64,000 nt of DNA from Candidatus Avelusimicrobium intestinale (GTDB lineage: Bacteria > Elusimicrobiota > Elusimicrobia > Elusimicrobiales > Elusimicrobiaceae). Numbering within the stretch: position 1 is the stretch's first letter; each line of letters starts with the position of its first letter. Under the pieces are notes generated by a model. It did not search any database, was not told where the DNA came from, and worked only from the letters and a program-made list of their open reading frames with translations. Positions 49,712-57,727 of the stretch are shown in pieces. Both the position numbers and the translations under genes were made by a program. The stretch lies in the NCBI GenBank assembly GCA_902765225.1, contig CACWYV010000003.1:62001-126000 (forward strand), written 5' to 3'.

Positions 49712-49825
49712 AGGTTCGTTTCTCCTTAACTAAGTTATACAAATACGTATACTAGATTATACCATATTGGGCCGGATTGGGAAGGGTTATCCGGTTGATT
49801 GTGTTAAATATTTCAACAAGCAAGA

Positions 49826-49831
49826 TATAAT
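49826..49831 (+). promoter_or_regulatory. -10 box of the O-antigen-ligase gene
   Basis: TATAAT 16 nt before ATG 49848; no clear ribosome site in the short leader. Confidence 0.55.
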
Positions 49832-49847
49832 TTGTTACCATATAAAC

Positions 49848-52151
49848 ATGTCTAAACAACGCCGGTTTTCCCAACAAACGAAAACTTCCGCCGCAGCAGG
49901 TCCCGGCGGCCGTGTCTTGCCGGAAGTAAACGGCGATTTTTCGCAAGCGGCCGAGACTTTTTTACACCGGGCTCTGGTACAGGTAACCGGAGTGCTGGGG
50001 TTGCTGATAACGGTTTCGTTTTTTACCGCGACGTATGATACGGCCCAAGTGAAATTAACGCTGCTACACATGGGGGGGCTTTTGCTCGCGGGGTTGTGGG
50101 GGGCGTTGCAACTGGTCCGTCGTGAAAATCCGTTTACAAGGAAAAATTTTCCGTTTTTACTGCCGGTATGGGTGTATTTGGGGTGGAATATTCTTTGTTT
50201 TATCTGTGCGCCGTACCACCTCAATGCGTTGGAAGAATTTATCCGCTTTTTGCTCTACGGCATGATTACGCTTTTAGCGGCTACCCAGTTTTCTACCGAA
50301 GATGTCAAAACCGTTACGAAGTGGATTTTGGCCGCTGCGTGGATTTCGGTCCTGTATGCGCTTGTACAGGTGGGGAATATTTTTTATCCGGGAATGGATA
50401 TAATGCCGTGGCGCGGATTTTTCGGCAAGCGGGTTTTTTCCGTACATGCCAATCCGAATTTCTACGGAGATTTTATTGTTTTTACTTCTTGTTTGGCCGG
50501 CGGCGTGTTCTTGATCAAACGCCAAAAATCCCTGTTGTTGCTGATGGGGTTGGGGCTTATCACGCTATTCTTTACAGAAAGTAAAGGGGCGTGGTTAGCC
50601 TATGCGGCGGCCTTGGCCGTCTTTGCTTTCTTTTACACCAATGCGTGTGCCGAAAAATTAAAGAGATATCGTAAACGGTTAAATATCCTGGCTTTGGTAA
50701 CGGTTGTTTTGGCGATTGGACTGACCGGAGTGTACACAGCCAAGCGGTTTCAATCGGTCAGTTTCCGTACGCACACGTGGTTGGGTACGCTGGAGATGAT
50801 TAAAGATTCTCCGGTGCTGGGGGTGGGTGTTGGAAATTTTAAAACAGTATATGCGGCGTACCGCCGGCCTCAAATTTTTTATATTGAAAACTCGCACAAT
50901 ACCGAAACACAACATGCCGAGAACGAACTGTTGGAACAAGCGGCGGTATCGGGTGTCGTCGGGTTGGCTATTTTCCTGGGACTCATTTCGTTTTTGGGGA
51001 TTTTGTCCTGGCGCACATGGCACCAAAAAGGACTTTCGCAAGATCGCCGGTTTTATCTGTTGGGATATGTAGCGGCTTTGTTGGGAATTTTTATCCATAG
51101 TTGGATGGATATCAGTATCCACTTTGCTTCCAGTGGTTATTTCTTTGCGTTATTTATGGGTATTATTCTGGCTTTGTGCCGGCCGGAGGCGGAAGAAAAG
51201 CCGCGGAAGGTTTTCTCTCCTTCTGCCGGATGGGCGTTGGGAATAGGCCGGGGCGTGCTGGCCTTGGGTTTGTGTTTTTGTGCGGGGTGGATTATCTATT
51301 CATTTTACCACATTACGATTTCACTAGGGAAGAAAACGCTGGGAGAAATGTTGCTACTCGGGCTGTCATGGGCGGTTTTAGCGGGCAGTTTGGCCGGGGG
51401 AGGGTATGTGGTTTGGAAAAGCGCGCGCAAGATTCGGTCCTGGCCGGCGCTCGTGCCGCTTTTAGTACTAATTCCTTTAGAGGCCCTAGCGTATTGTCCT
51501 TTTCAAGCCAATCATCTGTATAGTTTGGGGATTGCGGTGTACAAGATGCGCGATATGGAAGGTGCGCTGGCTTGCTTTACCCAAGCCATTAAATGGAATC
51601 CGCTCAAAACGGAAATGTATCAGTTCCGCGCCAATTTGTTGGCGGATATATTGGACCTAACCCCCCGGTTGTCCATAACTCACGGCGATCGCCAAACACC
51701 GTCGGACGATTTTACCCGTGCGGTGCGGGATTTCCAGGTGGTGCAAGACCGCGCTCCCAATCACCCGCTGTTGTACCATAATAAAGGCCAACTGTACTAT
51801 AAGATGGCACTCAACCGCTCTGAAGCGGCCCGCCGTGCCCGTAACATAGTAGAATATGAAGAACTAAAACGGGCGGCTCTGGATCAGATGGTTTTGGCGA
51901 AAAAATCATTTACGCGTTCCTTGGTAGCAGATCCGGTCAATCCGGTTACGTATACTTATCTAATACAAATTGCGTTGCTGGAAAATAATTTAGAGGAAGC
52001 CGAACGTTGGATTGCCCGTTTTGAAAAAGGACATCCGCTAATCACGGAAGAAGAATTTTTGCGGCGTAACCGGGAATACCAACCGATACAACAACTCAAA
52101 AAGCAGGTACAATTACGGCGCGCACAAACCGGGCAGCCGGCACATTCGTAA
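49848..52151 (+). CDS. O-antigen ligase/polymerase (Wzy_C) with C-terminal TPR domain
   Basis: 767 residues from ATG 49848. About a dozen membrane helices between residues 40 and 550; the Wzy_C/WaaL loop region contains VHANPNFYGDFI, ESKGAWLAY and THTWLGTLEMIKDSPVLGVGVGNF, with periplasmic HAENELLEQAAVSGVVGL. Residues about 565-760 hold TPRs (AVYKMRDMEGALACFTQAIKWNP onward). Such proteins polymerise O-chains, ligate them to lipid A-core, or glycosylate pilins (PilO/TfpO-like). Candidate end user of the rfb operon sugar and possibly of the pilins here; that link is inference. Confidence 0.87.
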   Translation: MSKQRRFSQQTKTSAAAGPGGRVLPEVNGDFSQAAETFLHRALVQVTGVLGLLITVSFFTATYDTAQVKLTLLHMGGLLLAGLWGALQLVRRENPFTRKNFPFLLPVWVYLGWNILCFICAPYHLNALEEFIRFLLYGMITLLAATQFSTEDVKTVTKWILAAAWISVLYALVQVGNIFYPGMDIMPWRGFFGKRVFSVHANPNFYGDFIVFTSCLAGGVFLIKRQKSLLLLMGLGLITLFFTESKGAWLAYAAALAVFAFFYTNACAEKLKRYRKRLNILALVTVVLAIGLTGVYTAKRFQSVSFRTHTWLGTLEMIKDSPVLGVGVGNFKTVYAAYRRPQIFYIENSHNTETQHAENELLEQAAVSGVVGLAIFLGLISFLGILSWRTWHQKGLSQDRRFYLLGYVAALLGIFIHSWMDISIHFASSGYFFALFMGIILALCRPEAEEKPRKVFSPSAGWALGIGRGVLALGLCFCAGWIIYSFYHITISLGKKTLGEMLLLGLSWAVLAGSLAGGGYVVWKSARKIRSWPALVPLLVLIPLEALAYCPFQANHLYSLGIAVYKMRDMEGALACFTQAIKWNPLKTEMYQFRANLLADILDLTPRLSITHGDRQTPSDDFTRAVRDFQVVQDRAPNHPLLYHNKGQLYYKMALNRSEAARRARNIVEYEELKRAALDQMVLAKKSFTRSLVADPVNPVTYTYLIQIALLENNLEEAERWIARFEKGHPLITEEEFLRRNREYQPIQQLKKQVQLRRAQTGQPAHS

Positions 52152-52166
52152 AGGGAGAAATAGCCT

Positions 52167-53039
52167 ATGTGGAAAATAGTTTGTTTAGTGGGGATCTTGC
52201 TAGGAAGTGTCATAGAGGGGAAGGCCGGGGTACCTTCTGACGTGTTAGCAACACGGGTGGCCCGTGCGGCGGCGCAAGCCTTGACCGCTGCAACCGCTGA
52301 AAATAACAGCGGGGCTATGAAAAATCACCAGATGGTGCAGTTCCGGGTATGGGATTACGAACATTTCCCGACGCATGCCCAGTATATTGCTTATGATATT
52401 GGTTGCAAGGCGTATGTGCTAGATAGTCATTGGCTGATTGTGAGCAGTGCTTGTATCCAGGCGCAGAACGAACTGATAAGCGATACGAATGTTTATGTGG
52501 AAGGCCACACGATAGCCCCGCTACAAAAAGAGGTTTCGCTAGAGGAAGGATTTCGCTTTTCCTTATTGTGGCATCCCAAACCCGTATATGCGGGGCCGTT
52601 TGTAAATGTGCTGGCTACTTTTTCTCCGGAACAGTTGATAGCTTTGGGCGATTCGGGTTATACATTACGGATGAATACTTCTCGGTTGGGATTAGACGTC
52701 ATTCGCCGGCGAAGCATTTCGGGCCCCAGTATTTTGGGAAATCTGTTTCACTTGGAAACAAATGTATTTCAAGTGACCGGTACGGCATTGGATCCGTTAT
52801 TTGTTACTTCGCCTGAACAAAGTGAATTTTTGGTGGCTTATAATGCCGGGTATATTACCTATAAAGCCGGGCCTCGGCCGCGGTGTTGGCGGAAGCATAA
52901 GTCCTCCGCGTGGTACAGCCTGGATAAGTACGATTTGGAATTTATCCAAAAAACCGTTTTGCAACATCGTCCGCAAGATTGGCCCCGTATTAAACAACGG
53001 CTTTTTTACAACCAAACCCACACCCCTTATTTCCGCTAG
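52167..53039 (+). CDS. Secreted trypsin-like pseudoprotease, copy A
   Basis: 290 residues. Signal peptide (1-20). The segment CKAYVLDSHWLIVSSAC (80-96) matches the chymotrypsin-fold strand pair C42...WVLTAAHC58, but the His57 position is Ala95. LLWHPKPVYAGPFVNVLA is shared with copy B. TGTALDPLFV sits where GDSGGPL is expected, with Ala instead of Ser. The end LFYNQTHTPYFR matches copy B. All three catalytic residues look lost. 15 nt after the ligase gene with GGGAG, so probably co-transcribed with it. Confidence 0.75.
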   Translation: MWKIVCLVGILLGSVIEGKAGVPSDVLATRVARAAAQALTAATAENNSGAMKNHQMVQFRVWDYEHFPTHAQYIAYDIGCKAYVLDSHWLIVSSACIQAQNELISDTNVYVEGHTIAPLQKEVSLEEGFRFSLLWHPKPVYAGPFVNVLATFSPEQLIALGDSGYTLRMNTSRLGLDVIRRRSISGPSILGNLFHLETNVFQVTGTALDPLFVTSPEQSEFLVAYNAGYITYKAGPRPRCWRKHKSSAWYSLDKYDLEFIQKTVLQHRPQDWPRIKQRLFYNQTHTPYFR

Positions 53040-53045
53040 AAAAGG

Positions 53046-53112
53046 GGGCCAAAAGACCTAGATCTGTCTAGGTCTTTTGGCCCTTGTGAAAGCTACAAAT
53101 ATTACTTACAAT
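53046..53112 (+). promoter_or_regulatory. Palindrome-promoter module, copy 4 (perfect)
   Basis: GGGCCAAAAGACCTAGA-TCTG-TCTAGGTCTTTTGGCCC (53046-53083), 17-bp perfect arms. -35 TTGTGA (53084-53089) starts on the next base, 17-bp spacer, -10 TACAAT (53107-53112). Leader to ATG 53234 is about 115 nt, the longest of the five. May also mark the 3' end of the preceding gene, but no T-tract follows. Confidence 0.75.
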
Positions 53113-53233
53113 AAAAGAGGAAGGACCCTGCCGGCCGTTGTAGGAGTAGAACCGGGTAGGGGAAAATTCATATATGGCCCCATGCGGGCCCGACGTAAAA
53201 GGTTGTGATGCTGTTGCATACTAGGGAGAGAAT

Positions 53234-54211
53234 ATGAAAAAAATACTTGTTGCCGTAAATGTCTTCCTGCTAGCGTGTACTTTTTCTTTTGCTTCTGAAA
53301 AGAGTAATTTGGACGCTAAGTTGGAAGCCGCTATTGCTGCCGCTGCCAAACCTGTGGGAATTAAAAAGGAGCCCCGGCAGTATAATTTGTCTCTGACCGC
53401 CCAGGAAGGGGTGTGGGGAAAAGAAGATAACGTTTTTACAGCCGAACCCGCCGATACACGCCAAAACACGACTATGAGCAACACGTGTAACGTGTATGCG
53501 TTGAGTGACCGTTGGGCAATTACTTCGGCGCAGTGTATACAAGATATATTCTCGCACAATTTCCGCTCCGTGGATGAGGCGCATGTGCGTGTGTACCGGC
53601 TTGAAGATTCTTCCAAAAAAGAGGCCAAGCCAGCCGATCGTTTCTTGGCCTTGGTGGGAAAAAACGGTATTATGAAAACGCGCCACCAACGGATTGCTTC
53701 CAACGGGAATATCATGTTGGTGTGGCACCCGAACGGGGAATATGCCGGCCCCTTTACCAATGTATTGGCCATGGAGGAGTACCAAAAATTAACTTCGCTC
53801 ATGAAATCTTTCTTCTTTGTGGGCGGTCGTATCCTCGTTACAAAAAAGTTTCCGCATAGCCGTTCCTTAACAGTGAAATCTATTCCTCAAGAGAACAATT
53901 TCCGCCTCTGCCGTACCTCTTTCCCGACCAACAACGGATTTTACGGACAAGCGGCTTCAGGCCTGTTGGGTTTTGATAAGGCCGGTGATGGATTCCTGAC
54001 CGGATTAAATGCGGGGGTAGTGCAGTGGAGTCCTATGGCGGCGAAAATTTATTCGCAATATGATACTTCCTCGTCTAATGTATGGAACGGTTTGACGAAA
54101 GATGACTTGATGTTCATTAAACAAACCGTCCAAGCCATTTATCCCGAAGATTGGGAACAAGTCAAAAAGCACTTGTTTTACAAGGTGACCGATTCTCCGT
54201 TCTTCCGTTAA
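53234..54211 (+). CDS. Secreted trypsin-like pseudoprotease, copy B
   Basis: 325 residues. Signal peptide (1-20). CNVYALSDRWAITSAQC (85-101) matches the Cys42-Cys58 region with His57 replaced by Gln100. SNGNIMLVWHPNGEYAGPFTNVLAM aligns with copy A; the Asp102 position reads Asn. GQAASGLLGF...FLTGLNAGVV is the GDSGGP region and may keep the Ser. C-terminal DLMFIKQTVQAIYPEDW...LFYKVTDSPFFR matches copy A (DLEFIQKTVLQHRPQDW...LFYNQTHTPYFR). Probably a binding protein rather than a protease. Own promoter module. Confidence 0.78.
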   Translation: MKKILVAVNVFLLACTFSFASEKSNLDAKLEAAIAAAAKPVGIKKEPRQYNLSLTAQEGVWGKEDNVFTAEPADTRQNTTMSNTCNVYALSDRWAITSAQCIQDIFSHNFRSVDEAHVRVYRLEDSSKKEAKPADRFLALVGKNGIMKTRHQRIASNGNIMLVWHPNGEYAGPFTNVLAMEEYQKLTSLMKSFFFVGGRILVTKKFPHSRSLTVKSIPQENNFRLCRTSFPTNNGFYGQAASGLLGFDKAGDGFLTGLNAGVVQWSPMAAKIYSQYDTSSSNVWNGLTKDDLMFIKQTVQAIYPEDWEQVKKHLFYKVTDSPFFR

Positions 54212-54338: not shown

Positions 54339-55142
54339 ATGAGCAATCCGATGTTTAATGAAGCTGCGTTTGAACGTGCTAAACAAGAACAAAGTCGTCC
54401 AACCGCCCACGCGCAAAGAGAAACTTTGCCCACGGAAGAATTGACTCCGCGCTACCGGGTAGCCGGTGCAAGCGTGATGACACTGCAAGGAACGATTAAT
54501 AAAACATTTTTCTTATTGGCTTTGTGTGTGGCCGGGGGATATGTGGGATGGAATCATTCTGAGAGATTATTGTCTTCTTCGGAGTGGTGGCTTAATGGCA
54601 CTATGTTAGCGGCCTTTGCTATCGCCGTGCTTACTGGTTTCAAACCGGTCCTGGCTTCTATTACTGCGCCCGTTTATGCTATGGCAGAGGGCTTTTGTTT
54701 GGGAATAATTTCCGCTATTCTTAATGAACAAGTGCCCGGTATTATATTGCAAGCCGTATTGGCTACCGGATTGGTATTGGCGGTTATGTTATTTATCTAC
54801 AAAACCGGAATATTAAAAGTTACCCAAGGTTTCGCGACCGCCGTTGTTTCTGCCACCCTCGCGATTGCCATTATGTATTCAGCGTCGTTGACATTTTCAT
54901 TATTTGGGGGAGATACTTCGTATTTAATTTCTTCCTCGCCGTTATCTATCGGGATTAGCGTAGTGGTGTGTATCGTGGCCGCACTCAACCTGATGCTGGA
55001 CTTCCAATTTATTTCGGACATGTCTTCTGGCGGGGACGCACCTAAATTTATGGAGTGGTATGCGGGATTTGGGTTGTTGGTAACTATCGTGTGGTTGTAC
55101 GTTGAGATCTTAATATTACTGAGTAAATTCAAACGCCGGTAA
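54339..55142 (+). CDS. Bax inhibitor-1 / YccA family membrane protein
   Basis: 267 residues. A soluble N-terminus (about 45) precedes seven membrane helices. PVYAMAEGFCLGIISAI and the C-terminal PKFMEWYAGFGLLVTIVWLYVEILILL are the family signature (cf. MEWYxAFGLLVTLVWLYLEILRL). Bacterial members (YbhL/YccA, BsYetJ) are calcium-leak channels or FtsH modulators. Monocistronic. Confidence 0.92.
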   Translation: MSNPMFNEAAFERAKQEQSRPTAHAQRETLPTEELTPRYRVAGASVMTLQGTINKTFFLLALCVAGGYVGWNHSERLLSSSEWWLNGTMLAAFAIAVLTGFKPVLASITAPVYAMAEGFCLGIISAILNEQVPGIILQAVLATGLVLAVMLFIYKTGILKVTQGFATAVVSATLAIAIMYSASLTFSLFGGDTSYLISSSPLSIGISVVVCIVAALNLMLDFQFISDMSSGGDAPKFMEWYAGFGLLVTIVWLYVEILILLSKFKRR

Positions 55143-55238: not shown

Positions 55239-55306
55239 GGGCCAAAAGACCTAGGCAGGCCTAGGTCTTTTGGCCCTTGTAGCGCAAGAGAGAAAAAAAA
55301 CATAAT
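55239..55306 (+). promoter_or_regulatory. Palindrome-promoter module, copy 5 (perfect)
   Basis: GGGCCAAAAGACCTAGG-CAGG-CCTAGGTCTTTTGGCCC (55239-55276), 17-bp perfect arms differing from copy 4 by a compensated pair (A-T to G-C) next to the loop. -35 TTGTAG (55277-55282) abuts it, 18-bp spacer, -10 CATAAT (55301-55306). A proper terminator lies upstream, so this is not one. Confidence 0.75.
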
Positions 55307-55365: not shown

Positions 55366-56316
55366 ATGAAAGTAAGTAAACGAACAAGTATCATAGCGTT
55401 GATTCTGGGCATATGTTTTATGTCTACTGGGGTCAACGCCGCAGATAGAGTCCCGGCAGGTAAAAAAGCGGTTACTCTATCCACCGAAACCTTAAGCCGT
55501 ATTATCACGCCGATGATTCAAAACGAAACACCGTCGCAATGGAAGCGGCCCGGCTATTTATCGCAGAAACAATGGGATTGGCTCGTGTCCGTTGCTAACC
55601 AAAACAAAAAAAACTATTTCATCCGTGATTATATGGAGTTTTTGAGCCATTTGGATATAGAGGATCCTTATCAATTTTCCGATATCCTTCCTCTCATAGA
55701 AAAATTGGATGCGGGCTATAAGCACTATGTAGAGATTTTGCAACGGAATTCGTTAGAAATTTCGTCAGATGAACAAAAAGCTTATGAAATGGTGCGCAAC
55801 GTTTTGTACAAAAAATATTCTTCCATTACTAATTTGACACCTGTACAGCGGGAATTGGCTCTGTTTTGCCCCAATATGAGTGCCAAACAGGTCCAGCAAT
55901 TGATGCCGGCAATTGCTGCGGATGCGCAATCATATGAGAAGGTTACCGTGAGATGTTACCCGAAGGCGGAATTAGTAACATATCGGGACAGAAATTATCC
56001 CGAATTTCATAATCCGATGTTGGGAACGACTGTCAGACAACAGGTGTTTACAAACAAAGTATTTGTGATACCTTTTGATATGGATGTTAACGGACACCAA
56101 AAAACCGACAAACTGGTTGTATATGATGCTAATACCGGGGAAAGAGAGGAAGAAATTGCCCTTTCTGGAGCGGAGGGTTATATCACACTTTTAACCCATC
56201 TGACCAACCCGGAAACAGAAAGAATTCGTTTCACTACTACGAATGCTTTTTATGTTGAACAATGGGGCGTATCCCTTGGGAACCCCACGGTGTATGGTTA
56301 CAACCGTAAGCGCTAA
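55366..56316 (+). CDS. Secreted protein of unknown function
   Basis: 316 residues. Signal peptide (1-25, ending VNAAD). An N-terminal helical half (to about 170), then a beta-rich half with C168 and C197 and the string TVRQQVFTNKVFVIPFDMDVNG. ACAGGAG ribosome site. Driven by promoter module copy 5. No family recognised. Confidence 0.75.
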   Translation: MKVSKRTSIIALILGICFMSTGVNAADRVPAGKKAVTLSTETLSRIITPMIQNETPSQWKRPGYLSQKQWDWLVSVANQNKKNYFIRDYMEFLSHLDIEDPYQFSDILPLIEKLDAGYKHYVEILQRNSLEISSDEQKAYEMVRNVLYKKYSSITNLTPVQRELALFCPNMSAKQVQQLMPAIAADAQSYEKVTVRCYPKAELVTYRDRNYPEFHNPMLGTTVRQQVFTNKVFVIPFDMDVNGHQKTDKLVVYDANTGEREEEIALSGAEGYITLLTHLTNPETERIRFTTTNAFYVEQWGVSLGNPTVYGYNRKR

Positions 56317-56533: not shown

Positions 56534-57727
56534 ATGAATTTTAACAACATCAAAAAAATGCAAGATATGGACCTAAAAAACAAAAAAGTACTTGTGCGTG
56601 TAGATTACAACGTGCCGCTTAAAGACGGGAAAGTGGATAATGCCAAACGCATCGTAGCGACGGAAAAAACCATTAAGTATTTGTTGGAGAATAACTGCCG
56701 TGTGGTACTCATTGCCCATTTGGGTCGTCCGAAAGGTAAAGTTTGCCCGGAATTTAGTTTGGCTCCTGTAGCGGCAGAAGTGGAGAAATTGTTTGGCGTG
56801 CCGGTGCACTTTGCCAAAGATTGCGTAGGGCCGGAAGCCGATAAAGTGGTAGCCGAAACGAAAAACGGCGAAATTGCTCTTTTGGAAAATTTACGTTTTC
56901 ACCCGGAAGAAGAAAAGAACGATGCCGAATTTGCCAAACAATTGGCCAAACACGGTGAAGTATTCGTACAAGAGGCATTCGGAACCGTCCACCGGGCGCA
57001 TGCTTCCACCAGCGCGGTAGCGCAATTGCTGCCCAGCGGTGCGGGATATTTGGTGCAGAAGGAAGTGGAATTTTTGGGTAAAGCGTTGGAAAACCCGGCC
57101 CGTCCGTTTGCGGCGGTGATCGGCGGGGCTAAAGTGTCCGATAAAATTTTACTGCTTAACAATTTGTTGGATAAGGTCAATGTACTGATTATCGGCGGCG
57201 GAATGGCGTATACGTTCTTGAAAGCCAAAGGTATTGAAGTAGGTAAATCTTTATTGGACGAGACAAAAATTGACGAAGCCAAACAAGTCATGCAGAAAGC
57301 CGCGGATAAAGGCGTCAAAATGCTTATGCCGGTAGATTACCGTGTGGCCAAGGAATTTTCCGAAACGGCTACCGCCACAGAGGTAGATCAAATCCCGGCG
57401 GGCATGGAAGCGATGGATATCGGTCCCAAAACGGAAAAATTGTTTGCCGATGAAATCTTAACCTGCAAAACGATTTTCTGGAACGGGCCGATGGGTGTAT
57501 TTGAATTCCCGAATTTCGCGCACGGCAGTTTTGCTATTGCCGATGCCATGATTGCCGCTACAAAAGCGGGTGCGGTTTCCATTATCGGCGGTGGTGATAG
57601 TGTCAACGTACTTAAAAAAGGGAAAATCAACCAAAAAGAATTTTCGCACGTTTCCACCGGTGGCGGTGCCAGTATGGAGTTTGTAGAAGGCAAAGAACTG
57701 CCGGGTTTGGTGGCACTGGCCAAGTAA
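56534..57727 (+). CDS. pgk: Phosphoglycerate kinase
   Basis: 397 residues. VLVRVDYNVPLKDGKV (residues 15-30; canonical R-x-D-x-N), IAHLGRPKG, ENLRFHPEEEKND, GGAKVSDK, NGPMGVFEF and GGGDS..N near the C-terminus. Glycolysis step producing ATP and 3-phosphoglycerate. CAAGGAG ribosome site. -10 TAAAAT at about 56476-56481, with a leader containing a weak GGTC/GACC hairpin. Monocistronic. Confidence 0.97.
   Translation: MNFNNIKKMQDMDLKNKKVLVRVDYNVPLKDGKVDNAKRIVATEKTIKYLLENNCRVVLIAHLGRPKGKVCPEFSLAPVAAEVEKLFGVPVHFAKDCVGPEADKVVAETKNGEIALLENLRFHPEEEKNDAEFAKQLAKHGEVFVQEAFGTVHRAHASTSAVAQLLPSGAGYLVQKEVEFLGKALENPARPFAAVIGGAKVSDKILLLNNLLDKVNVLIIGGGMAYTFLKAKGIEVGKSLLDETKIDEAKQVMQKAADKGVKMLMPVDYRVAKEFSETATATEVDQIPAGMEAMDIGPKTEKLFADEILTCKTIFWNGPMGVFEFPNFAHGSFAIADAMIAATKAGAVSIIGGGDSVNVLKKGKINQKEFSHVSTGGGASMEFVEGKELPGLVALAK

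What the first reader, a model, noticed from the sequence alone, without database searches (positions are those of the whole stretch)
52167..54211. Two adjacent secreted trypsin-fold proteins with lost catalytic residues
Both have the Cys-(x)~15-Cys strand pair of trypsins, but AAHC reads SSAC in one and SAQC in the other. The Asp and Ser positions are also changed in copy A. The flanking WHPxxxYAGPF.NVLA segment and the LFYxxTxxPxFR end are shared, so a non-catalytic function is conserved. Copy A appears to be in an operon with an O-antigen ligase; copy B has the palindrome promoter.
Basis: partly seen in the sequence, partly recalled or inferred. Interest (0 to 1): 0.55.

Follow-up and report, generated by a model that had tools for sequence, protein, structure and literature searches.

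The report
Secreted trypsin-like proteins without catalytic residues
Two neighbouring, probably secreted proteins of a bacterium whose relatives live in animal guts have kept the shape of the digestive enzyme trypsin but lost its cutting residues, and they belong to a fast-changing family of such dead enzymes that probably bind something rather than cut it.

Summary
Copies A (52167-53039) and B (53234-54211) are homologues (28% over 244 positions). Their models resemble chymotrypsin-fold proteases (A pLDDT 85.9, best Z 12.4; B pLDDT 71.0, best Z 11.2); a family profile finds S1 proteases (best E 7.4e-5). All three triad positions are replaced: Ala/Arg/Ala in A, Gln/Asn/Ala in B. No Pfam or NCBIfam family matches over cut-off. 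Of 61 relatives with readable sites, 1 keeps His57, 3 Asp102, 10 Ser195, none His57 with Ser195; yet Asp197, Pro198 and Asn213 stand in 57, 58 and 57. Relatives are under purifying selection (dN/dS 0.07-0.35, 21 pairs) but change much faster than pgk. In 31 of 41 readable loci they fill the interval between groEL and a Bax-inhibitor gene; 2 are empty. The O-antigen-ligase neighbour was found in no other stretch; the palindrome is a dispersed repeat. Best reading: exported pseudoproteases that bind through the former active-site side; ligand unknown. A new family of a known kind (compare UmbA, MamO).

The parts
52167..53039 (+). Copy A, 290-aa exported-type pseudo-trypsin (alpha subfamily); Shine-Dalgarno-like GGGAG before the ATG (by eye)
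52167..52226 (+). Copy A signal-peptide-like N-terminus (residues 1-20), read by eye, no predictor run
52404..52406 (+). Copy A Cys80 = Cys42 of chymotrypsin (64 of 64 aligned rows)
52449..52451 (+). Copy A Ala95 at the position of catalytic His57
52452..52454 (+). Copy A Cys96 = Cys58 (64 of 64 aligned rows)
52554..52556 (+). Copy A Arg130 at the position of catalytic Asp102
52785..52787 (+). Copy A Ala207 at the position of catalytic Ser195 (GDSGGP reads GTALDP)
52791..52793 (+). Copy A Asp209, the conserved Asp at position 197 (57 of 61 members)
52842..52844 (+). Copy A Asn226, the conserved Asn at position 213 (57 of 61 members)
53234..54211 (+). Copy B, 325-aa exported-type pseudo-trypsin; longest end branch of the family in the tree (2.13)
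53531..53533 (+). Copy B Gln100 at the position of His57 (SAQC)
53708..53710 (+). Copy B Asn159 at the position of Asp102
53951..53953 (+). Copy B Ala240 at the position of Ser195; the Asp of position 197 is Ser242 here
54008..54010 (+). Copy B Asn259, the conserved Asn of position 213, kept
53046..53083 (.). 38-bp palindrome between A and B; dispersed repeat of this genome (6 places), possible terminator
49767..52151 (+). O-antigen ligase-like gene (Wzy_C plus TPR) 15 bases before A; neighbour not found elsewhere
54339..55142 (+). Bax-inhibitor-1-like gene (PF12811), usual right-hand neighbour of the slot in the genus
56534..57727 (+). pgk, usual gene further right

Best explanation
A and B are members of an Elusimicrobiaceae family of exported S1 (chymotrypsin-fold) pseudoproteases. 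Shown by computation: the fold (A firmly, B less so), the loss of the triad, the kept Cys42-Cys58 pair, a conserved Asp197-Pro198 and Asn213, purifying selection in close relatives, and a conserved but variable chromosomal slot. Inferred: descent from active trypsins of the same bacterial family by gene copying and loss of catalysis; export by the general secretory route; and the way of working, which is binding without cutting. I propose that a peptide or protein partner is held on the side of the former substrate cleft, because the residues that are conserved in this family and not in its active cousins flank the dead Ser195 in sequence, while the rest of the protein changes fast. Rapid change and variable copy number suggest that the partner is variable too, such as a surface structure of a rival or of the host, or a protease inhibitor of the gut. 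The identity of the partner is not shown by anything here.
For: Fold: model of A, pLDDT 85.9, pTM 0.80, VIA best Z 12.4, rmsd 3.3 over 180 residues, MASP-3; model of B, pLDDT 71.0, pTM 0.73, best Z 11.2, rmsd 3.9 over 193, PPAF-II. Sequence: profile A4 against PDB chains, 221 distinct sequences at E <= 10, of which the best 60 were listed: kallikreins, thrombins, protein C and two chains named nerve growth factor (kallikrein-like subunits, recalled); best E 7.4e-5 with C42, the His57 site, C58 and the Asp102 strand in register. Triad: 61 of 64 members had the sites aligned; His57 1, Asp102 3, Ser195 10, His57 with Ser195 0; Asp197 57, Pro198 58, Asn213 57 of 61. No His column is conserved at 70%, and no set that could replace the triad is seen. 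Selection: omega 0.07-0.35 in 21 of 23 close pairs (two had no finite dS); only four of these pairs have dS under 1, with omega 0.13, 0.13, 0.23 and 0.35. Single origin: family and active trypsins fall on two sides of one branch, 89/81, in 86% of bootstrap trees. Locus: 31 of 41 groEL to BI-1 intervals hold at least one member, 53 of 54 members on the strand of BI-1. Active cousins in the same genome: L087 and L088, TAAHC with an Asp and GNSGGG or GMSGSG.
Against: No ligand, partner gene or experiment. Foldseek TM-scores by model length are low (0.28-0.41 for A, 0.29-0.36 for B in the 50 rows shown of each; rmsd 8.3-11.8). The second barrel of B is modelled badly (residues 197-208 below pLDDT 50), and B has lost Asp197 as well. 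The two models rest on the same 24 sequences, so they are not independent. Where Asp197 and Asn213 point is inferred from the strand order; I had no coordinates. dN/dS was measured on relatives, mostly at saturated dS; A and B have no close orthologue (best identity 39.9% and 29.5%). The 61-member count uses a profile built from triad-less sequences and a cut (E < 1e-12) chosen after looking, which can leave out triad-bearing members. The tree tool warned of long branches that meet. The slot is empty in 2 of 41 loci, so the genes are dispensable.
Confidence: 0.6

Rival explanations
1. Still an enzyme: the trypsin scaffold has rebuilt an active site from other residues (for example around Asp197 and Asn213) and hydrolyses peptides or glycans.
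For: Asp197 and Asn213 are near-invariant (57 of 61 each) and lie close to the old Ser195; position 55 (S93 of A) is Ser in 49 of 64 rows and Glu220 is Glu in 52 of 63.
Against: No conserved His and no conserved nucleophile with a base; B lacks Asp197; Gly193 is only 45 of 61, so the oxyanion hole is not strictly kept either.
Confidence: 0.1
2. Decoy for protease inhibitors: the dead trypsins soak up serpins, Kunitz or ecotin-type inhibitors of the gut and so protect the cell's own active trypsins (L087, L088).
For: Active-looking secreted trypsins exist in the same genome, and 66 of 66 genomes of the genus have a PF00089 match at E <= 0.01, 65 over the cut-off (the family also takes in HtrA-type proteins); rumen or rectum in the record titles of three relatives; fast change of the family.
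Against: A decoy should keep the substrate-binding geometry; the His57 and Ser195 sites are lost. The genes are not next to L087 or L088, which lie on other contigs.
Confidence: 0.15
3. Subunit of a surface or secreted particle: a UmbA-like adaptor whose cleft holds an extended peptide of a partner protein.
For: UmbA trypsin-like domains lack the full triad and bind an extended N-terminus of UmbB in the cleft (PMC11062931, passages read); Umb1 chains are among the top Foldseek matches of A (8w20_C, rank 6, E 7.7e-5); members stand in tandem in 14 of 43 loci.
Against: No ALF-repeat match over cut-off in any of 66 genomes (3 had weak matches, the own genome none); no lectin family in A or B; the two subfamilies stand together in 10 of 14 tandem loci, about what random mixing would give.
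Confidence: 0.2
4. Decaying genes: leftovers of active trypsins without function.
For: Copy B has the longest end branch of the family (2.13) and has lost even the Asp197 motif; some loci hold only short proteins with weak partial matches.
Against: Intact reading frames of A and B; Cys pair in 64 of 64 aligned rows; omega 0.07-0.35 in relatives; presence in 31 of 41 slots and in a sister genus.
Confidence: 0.07

Closest known systems
UmbA trypsin-like domain of Streptomyces umbrella toxin particles (PMC11062931, passages read)
   Same: Secreted bacterial trypsin-fold domain without a complete triad and without measured activity; paralogous; Foldseek match to A (8w20)
   Different: UmbA carries lectin domains and works with UmbB and the ALF-repeat toxin UmbC; here no lectin family and no ALF match over cut-off
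MamO of magnetotactic bacteria (PMC4794232, passages read)
   Same: Bacterial trypsin-like protein with a degenerate triad kept for a non-catalytic task
   Different: MamO lies in the Deg branch of Trypsin_2, has a C-terminal transporter domain and a metal-binding His pair; here no transporter family was matched and no His is conserved over the family
Animal serine protease homologues (PPAF-II, protein Z; their status as inactive homologues is recalled)
   Same: S1 fold with lost catalysis; 2b9l is the best VIA match of B (Z 11.2), and 2b9l and 3f1s are in the list of A (Z 11.3 and 11.1)
   Different: Extracellular animal cascades with clip, EGF or Gla domains (recalled); no such family matched here
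Active-looking S1 trypsins of the same bacterial family (L087, L088 and relatives)
   Same: Same Cys-x15-Cys spacing and signal-like N-terminus, weak match to the family profile (E 5.6e-5 and 1.8e-4)
   Different: Intact TAAHC, Asp and G.SG motifs; other side of one branch in the tree (89/81); elsewhere in the genome

Membership tests
S1 (chymotrypsin-like) peptidases, as active enzymes | Two-barrel chymotrypsin fold | tested here: met
   A: (Z 12.4). B: (Z 11.2, low-confidence second barrel)
S1 (chymotrypsin-like) peptidases, as active enzymes | His57, Asp102, Ser195 | tested here: not met
   A: Ala, Arg, Ala; B: Gln, Asn, Ala; 0 of 61 members have His57 with Ser195
S1 (chymotrypsin-like) peptidases, as active enzymes | Sequence homology to the family | tested here: met
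   Profile A4 finds S1 chains, best E 7.4e-5; of 40 single members, 1 has a PF00089 match at E <= 1, best 0.11
S1 (chymotrypsin-like) peptidases, as active enzymes | Proteolytic activity | not testable with these tools
   needs purified protein
UmbA of umbrella toxins | Trypsin-like domain without full triad | tested here: met
   definition from passages
UmbA of umbrella toxins | Lectin domain fused to the trypsin-like domain | tested here: not met
   no lectin family in the Pfam scan of A and B at E <= 1
UmbA of umbrella toxins | ALF-repeat UmbC in the same genome | tested here: not met
   0 of 66 genomes over the PF03752 cut-off, 3 with weak matches at E <= 0.01, the own genome none; the 14 control genomes held none either, so sensitivity was not shown
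MamO | C-terminal TauE-type transporter domain | tested here: not met
   no such family; the S1 fold reaches residue 276 of 290 in A
MamO | Surface di-His metal site | tested here: inconclusive
   no His column conserved at 70% in 66 aligned stretches; a site special to A or B was not sought
Anti-phage defence or phage protein | Match to a PADLOC or PHROG family | tested here: not met
   no family at E <= 0.1 for A, B and one relative

The most novel reading that the evidence does not exclude
The groEL to BI-1 interval is a dedicated diversification locus: Elusimicrobiaceae have turned a trypsin into a scaffold for recognition, keep the fold and an Asp197/Asn213 site, and vary the rest, the copy number and the length from species to species to keep up with a changing partner in the gut (rival, phage or host). 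It would be a counterpart of the diversified lectins of umbrella toxins, built on the trypsin fold alone.
Probability: 0.2. Interest if true: 0.75.

Novelty: new variant of a known kind. Interest (0 to 1): 0.5.

Why it matters
Bacterial pseudo-trypsins are known from few cases (UmbA and MamO are the two I found). Here is a whole family, with a strong member (E < 1e-12) in 46 of 66 genomes of one genus (counted) and members in a sister genus, and with a readable series: active cousins, members that still keep Ser195, members that have lost all three residues, and short proteins with partial matches. The residues that are conserved instead (Asp197, Pro198, Asn213) can be tested, and the slot beside groEL makes the genes easy to find in new genomes. 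It also warns against annotating such genes as proteases.

Tried and rejected
Pfam and NCBIfam scans gave no family over cut-off for A or B; PADLOC and PHROGs gave none at E <= 0.1. Umbrella-toxin membership was tested through ALF repeats and failed. O-antigen link: ligase homologues (E <= 1e-5) were sought in the ORFs of 60 fetched stretches, 43 of them with a strong member, and found only in the own one; several stretches are short and do not show the left neighbour. Palindrome promoter: a dispersed element (6 places). Heteromer idea: alpha and beta subfamilies stand together in 10 of 14 multi-copy loci, but random mixing of 33 and 26 copies would give about 7 (my estimate), so I do not claim it. 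The first genome-contig scan with copy B alone found no relative. The 316-aa ORF at 55366 was checked as a possible further member: it has no homologue at E <= 0.01 in the ORFs of the other stretches.

Paper searches: Elusimicrobi with trypsin (44 papers, 15 seen as listing), with serine protease (20, 8 seen), with pseudoprotease (0), with groEL and secreted (0); pseudoprotease with bacteri and trypsin (47, 15 seen); umbrella toxin with UmbA and trypsin-like (2); Elusimicrobium minutum with genome (78, 10 seen). Passages were read in PMC11062931, PMC4794232 and PMC12748827; the last bears on neither question. No title or abstract start in these listings named this family; the unlisted rest and papers outside the held library were not seen.

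Rows dropped: searches kept 24 rows, leaving out copies of one gene in overlapping loci and a cut-off copy of B; one search had 43 different proteins, of which A4 (40 rows) leaves out three that run off a contig end (L022, L037, L049). The one search count takes 64 proteins with E < 1e-12 and drops 3 whose sites did not all align. The slot count leaves out L139, where BI-1 has moved, and sees only stretches that hold both groEL and BI-1. One search scored at most 6 candidates a genome, so its tally is a lower bound. One search used pairs over 55% identity only; two of 23 had no finite dS.

Full report
WHAT IS THERE. Window 52167-53039 and 53234-54211 hold two intact genes on the + strand, 194 bases apart, with Shine-Dalgarno-like sequences and secretion-type N-termini, both read by eye. 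They are homologous (28% over 244 positions, E 1e-19) and are the only strong members found in this 1.41-Mb, 7-contig genome. Neither reaches a Pfam or NCBIfam cut-off.

FOLD. A profile of 40 relatives matches S1 proteases of the PDB, best E 7.4e-5, with Cys42, the His57 site, Cys58 and the Asp102 strand in register. The model of A (pLDDT 85.9, pTM 0.80) aligns with MASP-3 at Z 12.4, rmsd 3.3 over 180 residues; of the 999 chains that Foldseek had ranked and VIA aligned, 938 have Z 8 or more. The model of B is weaker (pLDDT 71.0, pTM 0.73), but the rows shown are nearly all of the same kind, best Z 11.2. Foldseek agrees in kind, with low TM-scores.

CATALYTIC SITES. A has Ala95, Arg130 and Ala207; B has Gln100, Asn159 and Ala240 in place of His57, Asp102 and Ser195. 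Over the family, 64 proteins of the fetched stretches score better than 1e-12 and 61 have the sites aligned: His57 in 1, Asp102 in 3, Ser195 in 10, and no protein has His57 together with Ser195. The one with His57 (L110:6019) has Phe at 195. Two proteins of a sister genus (L153, L154) keep Asp102 and Ser195, with Tyr at 57. Against this decay, Asp at 197 (57 of 61), Pro198 (58 of 61) and Asn at 213 (57 of 61) are held. In the active trypsins I read Gly, Ser or Ala at 197 and Val, Ile or Thr at 213, by eye and without alignment, as the profile did not align them there. In the model of A the strands 210-214 and 220-226 follow each other; as a hairpin they would put residues 209 and 226 near each other. 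This is inference, as no coordinates were at hand. No conserved His, and no set of residues that could make another triad, is seen.

FAMILY AND LOCUS. With profile A1, 42 of 340 genomes of the phylum match at E <= 0.001, in 2 of 100 genera; with the wider A4, 57 of 66 genomes of the genus (46 of 66 at E < 1e-12, counted from the rows) and 74 of 90 of the bacterial family; the weakest of these matches include active trypsins and short slot proteins. Record titles of relatives name uncultured Elusimicrobium and Elusimicrobiaceae, three of them with rumen or rectum. I fetched 60 stretches around pgk or the family genes. The usual order is protein kinase, PP2C, groES, groEL, family genes, Bax-inhibitor-1-like gene, in some genomes a GAPDH gene, pgk. 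Of 41 loci with groEL and BI-1 in order, 31 hold at least one strong member, 6 only short proteins with weak partial matches, 2 an unmatched protein of about 231 aa, and 2 are empty (107 and 112 bases). 53 of 54 members share the strand of BI-1. A second place lies near tpiA. In the sister genus members also follow groEL (L155, L156, L158); BI-1 was not detected there. In the window genome the O-antigen ligase stands where groEL stands elsewhere; no groEL is in the 64 kb, and no ligase homologue was found in the other 59 stretches.

EVOLUTION. A maximum-likelihood tree of 64 members and 22 active-looking trypsins puts them on two sides of one branch (89/81; 86% of bootstrap trees). Long branches, a warning that some meet, and a profile biased to triad-less proteins limit this. 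Close pairs have omega 0.07-0.35 (21 of 23 pairs; four with dS under 1). Yet the family changes fast: to the genome of L134, A is 39.9% identical, BI-1 68.2% and pgk 95.5%. In L113 against L119, BI-1 and PGK are 99-100% identical in protein while the family protein is 62%, and its dS (0.77) exceeds that of BI-1 (0.24) and PGK (0.06), which points to exchange of single slot genes as much as to fast change.

HOW IT MAY WORK. Shown by computation: an exported-type trypsin fold with the disulphide Cys pair and no catalytic triad, kept by selection in relatives. Inferred: it binds rather than cuts, near the former active site. One bacterial precedent is UmbA, whose trypsin domain lacks the full triad and measured activity and holds an extended peptide of UmbB in its cleft (PMC11062931, passages); MamO is a second, with metal binding (PMC4794232, passages). 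This family is not shown to be either: no lectin family, no ALF match over cut-off, no transporter family, no conserved His. It works like them in being a repurposed protease scaffold.

VERDICT. The operon link and the special promoter do not hold up. The function remains an inference.

Noticed in passing
window 53046-53083 and 55239-55276: A 38-bp palindrome (GGGCCAAAAGACCTAG...CTAGGTCTTTTGGCCC, then TTGT) stands before copy B and before the ORF at 55366; 6 places in the genome with up to 3 mismatches, the backwards control 0.
   Followed up: partly
window 55366-56316: A 316-aa secreted-type ORF without Pfam match over cut-off and without homologue in the ORFs of the other fetched stretches stands between BI-1 and pgk, where some relatives have a GAPDH gene and others nothing.
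   Followed up: partly
L130, L131, L132 (slot between groEL and BI-1): The slot also holds proteins of 160-380 aa of other kinds, some with a Cys pair and NAKG in place of the trypsin strand; six genes in the slot of L132.
   Followed up: partly
L050, L059-L062, L064, L066: Many pilE-like genes (TLIELLVVVLIIGIL) lie around the slot, often on the opposite strand.
   Followed up: no
L160, L171, L172: The sister genus has active-looking secreted trypsins (TAAHC, GISGSG) in tandem pairs.
   Followed up: no
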